From Bacillus multifaciens (GTDB lineage Bacteria; Bacillota; Bacilli; Bacillales; Bacillaceae_G), in contig NZ_JAVBXD010000002.1 in the NCBI RefSeq assembly GCF_030756675.1, forward strand, positions 124,001 through 188,000: 64,000 nucleotides of DNA, given 5' to 3'. Positions 21,713 through 58,511 of the stretch are shown here, one piece after another. The position numbers were made by a program, and so were the translations under genes. Under the pieces are notes generated by a model that did not search any database, had not been told where the DNA came from, and worked only from the letters and a program-made list of their open reading frames with translations. Within the stretch, counting starts at the first letter, position 1; the number at the start of each line of letters is the position of its first letter.

Positions 21713-21741
21713 TTGACTTTCATTGTTATCGATAATATAAT
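21713..21741 (+). promoter_or_regulatory. Sigma-A promoter of the tRNA pair
   Basis: TTGACT, 17-bp spacer, TATAAT, about 40 bp before tRNA-Gly. Confidence 0.85.
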
Positions 21742-21781: not shown

Positions 21782-21855
21782 GCGGGTGTAGTTTAGTGGT
21801 AAAACAAGAGCCTTCCAAGCTCTGGTCGAGAGTTCGATTCTCTTCACCCGCTCCA
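21782..21855 (+). tRNA. tRNA-Gly (anticodon TCC)
   Basis: Acceptor arms GCGGGTG and CACCCGC pair, with D-arm GTTTAGTGGTAAAAC, anticodon arm AGAGC-CTTCCAA-GCTCT and T-arm GAGAGTTCGATTCTCTT. CCA is encoded (21853-21855). It reads GGA codons. One base separates it from the split tRNA-Arg. Confidence 0.96.
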
Positions 21856-21856
21856 T

Positions 21857-22217
21857 GTCCCAGTAGCTCAGCAGGATAGAGCAACGGCCTTCAAGAATAG
21901 GAGCCTTTATAGGGAAACAAGAACCTATAAAGTGGACGACACTATATCGGTGAAGCCTTAACAGTACGGCTGATGGTAATACCGAGGAAACTTACGATCT
22001 TCTAAGAAGATTGAGGAGTTTTGAATGATTAAGGAAACACCTTAATGGTAAAAACTCTAAAGTATGATGAAAATCATCGTGAGGTTCCGTAGAGACTACA
22101 CGTGTCGCACCTGAAATGGTGAAGATATAGTCCAGACTACAAACAGTATTTGCTGGTAGCGAAAGCTATGGTGGTAAGCTAAGCCGTCGGTCGGGAGTTC
22201 GAATCTCTCCTGGGACG
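21857..22217 (+). tRNA. tRNA-Arg (anticodon TCT), interrupted by a group I intron
   Basis: Exon 1 is 21857-21891 and exon 2 is 22179-22217. Joined, they give a 74-nt tRNA: acceptor GTCCCAG with CTGGGAC, D-stem GCTC/GAGC, anticodon stem ACGGC/GCCGT, loop CTTCTAA, T-stem GGGAG/CTCTC with one G-U pair, discriminator G. The anticodon is UCU (AGA codons) and the intron lies between positions 34 and 35. CTA follows the discriminator, so CCA must be added after transcription, unlike the neighbouring tRNA-Gly. Confidence 0.9.
21892..22178 (+). ncRNA. Group I self-splicing intron in tRNA-Arg
   Basis: 287 nt. It obeys the group I rules: the 5' exon ends in U and the intron ends in G. The 5' exon end GGCCTT can pair with GGAGCC at 21900-21905, with one mismatch and a U-G pair at the splice site (P1). 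The R segment GTAGAGACTA holds GACTA (22094-22098), which pairs with TAGTC (22128-22132) of the S segment GAAGATATAGTCC to form P7; CACC/GGTG (22108-22121) is P8. No reading frame for a homing endonuclease is inside. Structural subgroup not decided. Confidence 0.88.
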
Positions 22218-22221
22218 CTAC

Positions 22222-22255
22222 AAAGAAGTGCATGAGTGTACTTCTTTTTTTTACC
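22222..22255 (+). terminator. Terminator after the tRNA pair
   Basis: Arms AAAGAAGT and ACTTCTTT followed by a T run. Confidence 0.8.
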
Positions 22256-22293
22256 CCTTACATCGTTTGGTTGAATGGTGTAAGGGGTTTTTT
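22253..22293 (+). terminator. Second terminator after the tRNA pair
   Basis: Arms ACCCCTTACA and TGTAAGGGGT around a 16-nt loop, followed by TTTTTTG. Tandem terminators suggest strong transcription of the tRNAs. Confidence 0.8.
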
Positions 22294-43392: not shown

Positions 43393-43679
43393 AATTGTCC
43401 TCCGTATTATAACCTTCTCTAGAATAGAATCATAAGAGAAGTGGAAATGTGATATTACAATATGCAGGATGGGCATCTAATGTGCTTGTGCTGCACTTTT
43501 TTCATTTTCTTTGCATATGTTATAAAAAACTTGGTTAAGCTTATTGGAAATAGAATGTAATAATTGTAGATATAAGTCGAAAAATATTTTTATCTTGACG
43601 AATGTAGTTTCGTTTTTTACACTATTGTATATAATAAATAACAATTATATAAATGCATTGAAGGGGAAGAGTATAACAT

Positions 43680-43900
43680 TAAACGTCTGCAGAGAGGAGA
43701 ATTATTAGCTGTGAGATTCTCTAGATAGTCATGTTAGAAGGTAGCCCTGGAGCATCTTTTCTGAACGGAGTCATTCTCATTAGGAAAAGACGGGTCTGTC
43801 CGTTATCAAATCAAGAGTATAAGCAAATTTTGAATTTGTTTGTAAATAAAGGTGGTACCACGATGTCCCTCGTCCTTTTTGGATGAGGGGCATTTTTTAT
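43680..43900 (+). promoter_or_regulatory. T-box riboswitch for tRNA-Val upstream of valS
   Basis: The T-box core AAGGTGGTACCACG is at 43849-43862; its UGGU bulge fits a tRNA with discriminator A, as in tRNA-Val. The stem I base pairs GAGAAT (43697-43702) with ATTCTC (43773-43778), and the specifier GTC (valine) lies just before it at 43770-43772. The terminator stem (43863-43892: ATGTCCCTCGTCC and GGATGAGGGGCAT, T run) follows. Uncharged tRNA-Val would stabilise the antiterminator. TTGACG with TACACT at 17 bp (43595-43623) is a possible promoter. Confidence 0.92.
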
Positions 43901-58390: not shown

Positions 58391-58430
58391 ATCTCTATGT
58401 TATAGTTTATAGCACCTAAACTGCTATATA

Positions 58431-58511
58431 CTACAACCGCGCAGGACAGGTTCCGAAAAGACATTGTATGTCTACCTCGTTTTGGCGAGTCTTAGTAATT
58501 ATGAGGAGGTG
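58431..58511 (+). promoter_or_regulatory. Ribosomal protein L21 leader
   Basis: ACAACCGCGCAGGACAGGTT and the following hairpin region up to GAGGAGGT match the conserved L21 leader RNA found before rplU in Bacilli. It is thought to bind L21 for autoregulation. AGACAT/ATGTCT and CTCG/CGAG form its hairpins. Confidence 0.85.

What the first reader, a model, noticed from the sequence alone, without database searches (positions are those of the whole stretch)
21857..22217. tRNA-Arg(UCU) split in its anticodon by a small group I intron
Seen: two halves that join into a complete tRNA cloverleaf, separated by 287 nt with P1, P7 and P8 pairings and the U/G splice rules of group I introns. The intron lies between positions 34 and 35, the same place as in cyanobacterial tRNA-Leu(UAA). 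Known: group I introns in this bacterial group are familiar from recA and ribonucleotide reductase genes; tRNA introns are known in cyanobacteria and some proteobacteria. I do not recall one in a Bacillus tRNA-Arg but cannot exclude a report. It carries no endonuclease gene, so it must self-splice or have spread with help. Tools that look for intact tRNAs would miss or misplace it.
Basis: partly seen in the sequence, partly recalled or inferred. Interest (0 to 1): 0.82.

Follow-up and report, generated by a model that had tools for sequence, protein, structure and literature searches.

The report
Self-splicing intron inside a Bacillus tRNA
The gene for the transfer RNA that reads AGA codons is interrupted in the middle of its anticodon by a small, probably self-splicing RNA intron, a once-mobile element that has lost its DNA-cutting gene but seems to keep the ends of that gene as part of its RNA fold.

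Summary
ARAGORN finds it only with introns allowed; 30 randomised windows give no tRNA call. All group I helices can be written, including P1, P10 and the P3/P7 pseudoknot. A 15-sequence alignment supports the fold through compensatory changes in P2, P6a-d, P9a, P9b and, across the intron, the anticodon stem. The catalytic helices barely vary there; P3 and P7 vary compensatorily only in phage tRNA introns.

Beyond the finding: the intron sits at the same site in 18 of 397 species drawn from the order, and a close neighbour of one carrier has the empty allele. Two relatives carry an intact PD-(D/E)XK endonuclease gene inside it, a profile relative of PDB 2ost. Others carry decaying pieces, and the window's P6 extension matches both ends of that gene. 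Phages carry related introns in tRNA genes; two carry the endonuclease as a free gene beside tRNA-Arg(UCU).

Splicing was not shown. This is a new member of a known kind that standard annotation misses. Eight searches of an open library listed no report of it; the key 2008 survey was not readable.

The parts
21713..21741 (+). likely promoter of the tRNA-Gly/tRNA-Arg unit (TTGACT-17-TATAAT)
   Evidence: 11 of 12 consensus matches; 1 promoter-like site found against 1.2 expected in shuffles of the region, so weak on its own
21782..21855 (+). intact tRNA-Gly(UCC), apparently the same transcription unit
   Evidence: ARAGORN, Rfam tRNA 70.8 bits
21857..21891 (+). exon 1 of tRNA-Arg(UCU), G1 to U34
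   Evidence: ARAGORN with introns; corresponding bases contiguous with exon 2 in intron-free relatives
21892..22178 (+). group I intron, 287 nt, ends in the terminal G
21898..21903 (+). internal guide sequence UAG-GAG: GAG pairs with exon 1 CUU (21889-21891, U34-G pair) as P1; UAG pairs with exon 2 CUA (22179-22181) as P10
   Evidence: kept in all 15 aligned sequences; invariant, so no covariation
21905..21932 (+). P2 hairpin
   Evidence: 4 of 9 pairs with compensatory changes
21937..21942 (+). P3 5' strand; partner 22102-22107
   Evidence: almost invariant in Bacillales; other, still pairing letters in phage tRNA introns
21947..21985 (+). P4, P5 and P5a
   Evidence: the first P5 pair is G-U in 8 and unpaired by standard rules in 7 of 15
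21986..22088 (+). P6 domain: P6 (21986-21989/22085-22088), P6a (21991-21998/22076-22083), P6b (21999-22009), P6c (22016-22021/22052-22057), P6d (22029-22034/22040-22045)
   Evidence: P6b-P6d: 14 of 16 pairs have a change on both sides
22004..22033 (+). likely fossil of the start of the endonuclease gene (codons for KGDLGVLKDQ in L097)
   Evidence: local match to the L097 gene reached by 1 of 500 shuffles
22041..22071 (+). likely fossil of the end of the endonuclease gene (codons for LRVETPKNNQ in L029)
   Evidence: local match to the L029 gene reached by 5 of 500 shuffles; spans the P6c/P6d 3' strands
22094..22098 (+). P7 5' strand GACUA; partner 22128-22132
   Evidence: invariant in 15 of 15; GGCCA/UGGCC and GACUG/CAGUC in two phage introns
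22108..22121 (+). P8 hairpin
22136..22175 (+). P9, P9a, P9b (GAAA loop)
22179..22217 (+). exon 2 of tRNA-Arg(UCU), C35 to the discriminator G; CCA not encoded
22222..22288 (+). two intrinsic-terminator-like hairpins after the tRNA (22222-22247, 22253-22288)
   Evidence: 4 such sites in the region, 0.4 expected

Best explanation
The one tRNA-Arg(UCU) gene found in this window, downstream of tRNA-Gly(UCC) and a calcineurin-like phosphoesterase gene (ysnB type, name recalled), is split between U34 and C35 by a group I ribozyme. After transcription the exon CUU docks on the internal guide GAG (P1, with the U-G pair at the splice site). An external guanosine bound in P7 attacks after U34. The freed exon 1 then attacks after the terminal G, with exon 2 held by P10, giving a 74-nt tRNA with anticodon UCU that reads AGA. 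The intron descends from a homing intron whose PD-(D/E)XK endonuclease cut intron-free tRNA-Arg(UCU) genes. In this lineage an internal deletion removed the gene, and its first and last codons survive as the paired P6c/P6d arm. Shown by sequence: intron, fold, site, empty alleles, the gene in relatives, similarity of the arm to the gene's ends. Inferred: splicing, cofactor use, cutting specificity, direction of change (deletion rather than insertion).
For: Structure: 97.1% of 1464 cells pair over 102 pairs in 15 sequences; 24 pairs show a change on both sides against 12.1 in shuffles, and slid controls pair at 36-41%. Exon selection: the anticodon stem changes compensatorily across the intron in two relatives. 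Empty site: L027 and L041 have flanks 93.5-100% identical in 200-column blocks, and within the tRNA gene differ only by a 278-nt insertion between U34 and C35; 73 of 77 orthologous loci that reach the tRNA have an intron-free UCU gene. No intact UCU backup among the inspected tRNA-like hits of 19 intron-bearing genomes; those read were CCU, ACG or not Arg. Gene: 137-aa ORF in L029, PDDEXK_5 E 2.9e-36; profile hits 2ost at E 2.5e-10 (that 2ost is I-Ssp6803I is recalled). Decay series: intact in L029 and L097, frameshifted in L171, shortened in L095 and L096, ends only in L091, L084 and others. Horizontal spread: L041 and L029 intron cores are 97.4% identical while their YsnB proteins are 47.5% identical.
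Against: No RNA data. The Rfam score is half the family's cut-off. P1, P4, P7, P8 and P10 never vary among the 15, so covariation does not test them there; P1 has only three continuous pairs, and a second register (guide GGAGCC, with one C-A mismatch) is possible. One of the five measures, further pair types, is not above shuffles (47 against 44.0; 79 of 500 as high). The fossil matches to the intact genes are modest (1 and 5 of 500 shuffles); of four gene-less relatives compared, three beat all shuffles and L088 did not (3 of 500). The tree of intron cores is poorly resolved (2 of 18 branches starred), and intron and YsnB identities correlate (Spearman 0.50, 153 pairs), so part of the history is vertical. 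Direction (deletion of the gene) rests on free-standing phage genes having similar ends.
Confidence: 0.9

Rival explanations
1. A decayed tRNA-Arg gene disrupted by a dead or never-splicing insertion, with another intact tRNA-Arg(UCU) elsewhere in the genome.
For: The window's genome is not held, so a second copy cannot be excluded there; L058 and L080 show that two UCU copies can occur in intron-free relatives.
Against: The exons are perfect and their stem changes compensatorily in relatives; no other UCU tRNA among the inspected hits of 19 intron-bearing genomes; intron ends and core are nearly invariant over 15 sequences.
Confidence: 0.05
2. The intron without a gene is the ancestral state here, and the endonuclease gene entered the P6 loop of some relatives, happening to resemble the arm already there.
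For: Copies without the gene are the majority (16 of 21 rows); the core tree cannot root the change.
Against: The arm of gene-less copies matches codons for protein ends (GDLGVLK, LRVE-PKNNQ) whose counterparts also stand in free-standing phage genes, so these letters probably began as coding sequence; intermediates with different deletion ends exist.
Confidence: 0.1
3. Chance arrangement of two tRNA-like halves around unrelated DNA.
For: None beyond the low Rfam score.
Against: 0 tRNA calls in 30 randomised windows; same site in 18 of 397 species of the order and the same fold in 15 aligned sequences.
Confidence: 0.005

Closest known systems
[quoted passage not shown]
   Same: Small group I intron, as a rule without a gene, same position between U34 and base 35 (recalled). 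The intron that ARAGORN places in a tRNA-Leu(UAA) of Agrobacterium phage Atu_ph07 aligns with the same core
   Different: Other tRNA and other phylum. The Bacillales intron has relatives with an endonuclease gene and is patchy. No cyanobacterial genome sequence was compared here.
Cyanobacterial tRNA-fMet intron with I-Ssp6803I (recalled)
   Same: tRNA anticodon-loop intron bearing a PD-(D/E)XK endonuclease; the L029 gene is Pfam PDDEXK_5 and its profile matches PDB 2ost
   Different: Other tRNA; in the window the gene is lost and only its likely ends remain.
Alphaproteobacterial tRNA-Arg(CCU) intron (Agrobacterium; Bartonella BbgpI)
   Same: Group I intron in a tRNA-Arg gene that was not annotated and that tRNAscan-SE saw only with the intron taken out; [quoted passage not shown]
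   Different: CCU isoacceptor and a different phylum; sequences not compared here.
Putative group I introns in tRNA-Arg(TCT) of Beggiatoa BOGUAY and Thiomargarita Bud S10
   Same: Same isoacceptor interrupted by a putative group I intron (PMC4853749, passages read)
   Different: Gammaproteobacteria; exact position and relationship not tested.
B. cereus group introns in recA, nrdE and prophage genes; BcISt1 IStron
   Same: Group I introns in the same presumed bacterial group (IStron survey PMC4227781, passages read; recA and nrdE recalled)
   Different: Those sit mostly in protein genes. Other Rfam group I hits in the relatives searched score up to 99 bits (their genes not looked at), the tRNA-Arg ones listed at most 38.

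Membership tests
Group I intron | Helices P3 to P8 with the P3/P7 pseudoknot, P1 and P9 | tested here: met
   All helices pair in the window and, with few misfits, in 15 sequences; P3 and P7 take other pairing letters only in phage introns
Group I intron | U at the end of exon 1 paired with G of the guide; G at the intron end | tested here: met
   U34-G pair and exon CUU/GAG in 15 of 15; the terminal G is an invariant column of the same alignment
Group I intron | Match to the family covariance model above its curated cut-off | tested here: not met
   25.1 bits against 50; E 1.8e-4. The tRNA-Arg introns listed for 8 of 19 relatives are also below the cut-off (which scored at most 62 candidates per genome)
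Group I intron | Guanosine-dependent splicing | not testable with these tools
   needs RNA
Functional tRNA-Arg(UCU) | Complete cloverleaf after splicing, anticodon UCU | tested here: met
   ARAGORN; contiguous native alleles in relatives; aminoacylation and use not testable
Subgroup IC3 | Subgroup-specific peripheral structure and core signature | not tested
   assignment is by resemblance and recall only
Mobile (homing) intron | Intron-encoded homing endonuclease | tested here: not met
   absent from the window's copy; present intact in L029 and L097; likely fossil ends in the window
I-Ssp6803I-type endonuclease (for the gene in L029) | PDDEXK_5 domain and profile match to the solved structure 2ost | tested here: met
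   E 2.9e-36; E 2.5e-10; the single sequence alone found nothing at E 0.001
I-Ssp6803I-type endonuclease (for the gene in L029) | Cuts the intron-free tRNA gene near the insertion site | not testable with these tools
   needs a cutting assay

The most novel reading that the evidence does not exclude
The two ends of the endonuclease gene serve at once as protein code and as the two strands of a P6 arm of the ribozyme. Loss of the gene by internal deletion therefore leaves a working helix, which is then kept by selection on the RNA. This would be a built-in way for a homing intron to shed its gene repeatedly without losing splicing, and would explain the many gene-less copies, with different break points, in an essential tRNA.
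Probability: 0.45. Interest if true: 0.65.

Novelty: new member of a known kind. Interest (0 to 1): 0.5.

Why it matters
It extends group I introns in tRNA genes to Bacillaceae; a 2014 review lists them in cyanobacteria, alpha- and beta-proteobacteria and plastids (PMC4033280, passages). If the UCU gene is single, decoding of AGA in such strains depends on a ribozyme. A default tRNA search and Rfam at its cut-off both miss it here, so such genomes can look as if they lacked this tRNA. Intact, frameshifted, shortened and lost endonuclease genes at one site, with natural empty alleles, make the gain-decay-loss cycle of a homing intron directly testable. The free-standing relatives of the endonuclease beside phage tRNA-Arg(UCU) genes suggest where it may have come from.

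Tried and rejected
Chance and dead-gene readings were tested and set aside. A tblastn of the plasmid collection found no endonuclease relative. A degenerate peptide scan of viral contigs found none, but a core DNA pattern found one contig, L171. The phylum draw gave 2 of 398 genomes with a blastn match, both already seen in the order draw. The 19 genomes of the family of Ectobacillus funiculus gave 0 (the tool warns that an empty answer without a known positive shows nothing), so no close relative of the window's species was seen with or without the intron. Two weak blastn hits, G092 and G331 (38 and 53 nt), were dropped from the 20 because ARAGORN saw no tRNA there. ARAGORN named the intron copies of L029, L097 and L096 tRNA-SeC, tRNA-SeC and tRNA-Ser; I read them as tRNA-Arg(UCU) from their exon letters. 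L082, L029, L095, L096 and L097 were left out of the 15-sequence alignment (L082 a near-copy of L081, the rest for long inserts). The first tRNA query missed even the split copies of G002 and G391; a second query found them and no other UCU gene. In one search some P3, P4 and P8 positions came from a first- or last-occurrence search and point at another copy of the same letters; those helices were read from the sequence. An AlphaFold job for the L029 endonuclease had not finished at the last look, so no fold comparison was made. Tourasse and Kolsto 2008, the most likely place for an earlier report, is not held.

Full report
What is there. The window holds what looks like one transcription unit: a promoter-like site at 21713-21741, tRNA-Gly(UCC) at 21782-21855, a split tRNA-Arg(UCU) and two terminator-like hairpins. 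ARAGORN with C-loop introns allowed reads tRNA-Arg(tct) with a 287-nt intron after the U at position 34. Read from the sequence, exon 1 is 21857-21891, the intron 21892-22178 and exon 2 22179-22217. Default ARAGORN misses it, and 30 randomised windows gave no tRNA call of any kind. Rfam's group I model covers 21881-22155 at 25.1 bits, half its cut-off.

Structure. I wrote the group I fold by hand and every intron pair holds in the window. On an alignment of 15 sequences (A2; I left out L082 and four copies with long inserts) 97.1% of cells pair, 24 of 102 pairs have a change on both sides (12.1 in shuffles), and sliding the partners drops pairing to 36-41%. One measure, further pair types, does not exceed shuffles (47 against 44.0). 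The support by covariation lies in P2 (4 pairs), P6a (1), P6b-d (14 of 16), P9a (1), P9b (1), the T stem (1) and the anticodon stem (2). P1, P4, P7, P8 and P10 are invariant, and the first pair of P5 fails standard rules in 7 of 15. Phage tRNA introns have other, still pairing letters in P3 and, in two of five, P7 (alignment A4). The anticodon stem is made of the two exons; its compensatory changes in L067 and L098 suggest that selection sees the joined tRNA.

Distribution. In 80 Bacillaceae, Listeria and related loci fetched by the neighbouring ysnB-type gene, 77 reach the tRNA; 73 have an intron-free tRNA-Arg(UCU) and 4 have an intron at the same place (L029 read by eye). In 397 genomes drawn from the order, 20 match the intron by blastn and 18 of these are introns in tRNA-Arg(UCU). 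In 398 drawn from the phylum, 2 match, both already seen. In 19 of the Ectobacillus family, none match. On a YsnB tree of 94 rows the intron label needs at least 10 changes, 5 forced by starred branches; shuffled labels need 16.7 on average, none of 500 as few. So the label is clustered but patchy. The closest empty/filled pair, L027 and L041, differs within the tRNA gene only by a clean 278-nt insertion; the flanks are 93.5-100% identical in 200-column blocks, with scattered substitutions and small gaps. The B. subtilis locus with rph, XTP/dITP diphosphatase, metallophosphoesterase and tRNA-Arg, here in a plasmid record, is intron-free.

Dependence on splicing. A tRNA query against 19 intron-bearing relatives found, besides the split genes, tRNAs with anticodons CCU and ACG, a tRNA-Ile and partial pieces, but no intact UCU gene. 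It missed even the split copies of G002 and G391. A second query found these and otherwise, in those two genomes, matches of at most 79% identity, except stretches of under 30 bases; the nine hits inspected there lie on tRNA-Met genes. The window's own genome is not held, so this is not known for it. AGA is used 78 times in 14,829 codons of 41 long mechanical ORFs of the window.

The endonuclease. The 616-nt intron of L029 holds a 137-aa ORF of Pfam PDDEXK_5 (E 2.9e-36). Its counterpart in L097 is read as 155 aa, with an upstream extension. A profile of five relatives matches PDB 2ost at E 2.5e-10; that 2ost is I-Ssp6803I, from a tRNA-fMet intron, is recalled. A single-sequence search of the PDB had found nothing. 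Phage genes are 56% (Synechococcus phage Sf-FR1) and 42% (Acinetobacter phage Herod) identical in the alignment (tblastn 57.9 and 42.4%, the best two of 18 phage records), and both lie just downstream of an intact tRNA-Arg(UCU).

Fossil in the window. The stop codon of the L029 gene lies just before P7, and its last codons are the P6a and P6 3' strands (read). The P6b-P6d region of the window's copy matches the start of the gene (30 nt; 1 of 500 shuffles as good, against L097) and its end (31 nt; 5 of 500, against L029). Against four gene-less or nearly gene-less copies it beat all 500 shuffles for L084, L085 and L091, and 3 of 500 matched it for L088. Other copies keep longer pieces with different break points (L095, L096), and L171 keeps the gene with frameshifts, on a viral contig beside a phage integrase gene. 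Since similar protein ends stand in free-standing phage genes, I read the gene-less state as derived by deletion. Intron cores are more alike than hosts in places: L041 and L029 97.4% against 47.5% for YsnB, window and L096 94.6% against 38.5%. Over 153 pairs the two do correlate (0.50), and the core tree has only 2 of 18 starred branches.

Annotation gap. In 19 relatives Rfam's model lists other group I hits up to 99 bits, but the tRNA-Arg intron in only 8, at 19 to 38 bits. At most 62 first-look candidates per genome were scored there, so some of the 11 absences may come from that limit. The tRNAscan-SE 2.0 paper says that it was not designed to detect tRNA genes with self-splicing group I introns (PMC8450103, passages).

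Literature. Read as passages: PMC3984707, PMC4033280, PMC4227781, PMC4853749, PMC5733544, PMC7717549, PMC8450103, PMC12513839. Eight searches listed no title or abstract start that reports a tRNA-Arg(UCU) intron in Bacillus or Bacillales; some searches listed 20 of 85, 30 of 216, 20 of 24 and 13 of 14 papers. Tourasse and Kolsto 2008 could not be read, so an earlier mention is possible. Putative tRNA-Arg(TCT) introns are on record for Beggiatoa and Thiomargarita (PMC4853749) and tRNA-Arg(CCU) introns for alphaproteobacteria (PMC7717549).

Verdict. A real, very probably functional group I intron in an anticodon loop, of a known kind, in an unexpected host, with an unusually readable record of how its endonuclease gene decayed.

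Noticed in passing
L136 1367-1635 and 1766-2017; L137 1313-1598; L138 1347-1633; L139 1251-1612: Four phages, three of them over 480 kb, carry group I-like introns in tRNA-Lys(UUU), tRNA-Arg(UCU), tRNA-Arg(CCU), tRNA-Ile(UAU) and tRNA-Leu(UAA) by ARAGORN; the phage tRNA-Arg(UCU) intron is placed at the same site as the window's.
   Followed up: partly
L172 1052-1626; L173 1109-1644: Free-standing PD-(D/E)XK endonuclease genes directly beside intact phage tRNA-Arg(UCU) genes, as expected of a tRNA-targeting endonuclease before or without intron capture.
   Followed up: partly
L183 (G061, about 11.4 kb after the split tRNA): Second copy of the last 27 or so bases of the intron plus exon 2: looks like the duplicated attachment site of an integrated element whose site runs into the intron.
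   Followed up: no
L182 (G086) 180-660: Three tandem units of about 150-170 nt before the split tRNA, each opening with the first 27 bases of tRNA-Arg followed by the same unrelated stretch; nature unknown.
   Followed up: no
L171 9694-12420: Phage integrase (Pfam E 1.1e-21) and Peptidase_S24/HTH repressor-like (E 3.1e-30) genes next to the split tRNA-Arg on a viral contig: the tRNA may serve as a prophage attachment site.
   Followed up: partly
L105 (G100), near the split tRNA: Partial second copy of intron positions 179-273, about 0.7-0.9 kb from the split tRNA, with no tRNA called there.
   Followed up: no
A2, P5 first pair (window 21955/21977): This pair is G-U in 8 sequences, A-C in 4 and C-C in 3 of 15; G-U to A-C would be an isosteric exchange (isostery recalled).
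   Followed up: no
window 43649-43880 and 58425-58502: T-box leader (143.7 bits) and ribosomal protein L21 leader (63.2 bits).
   Followed up: no
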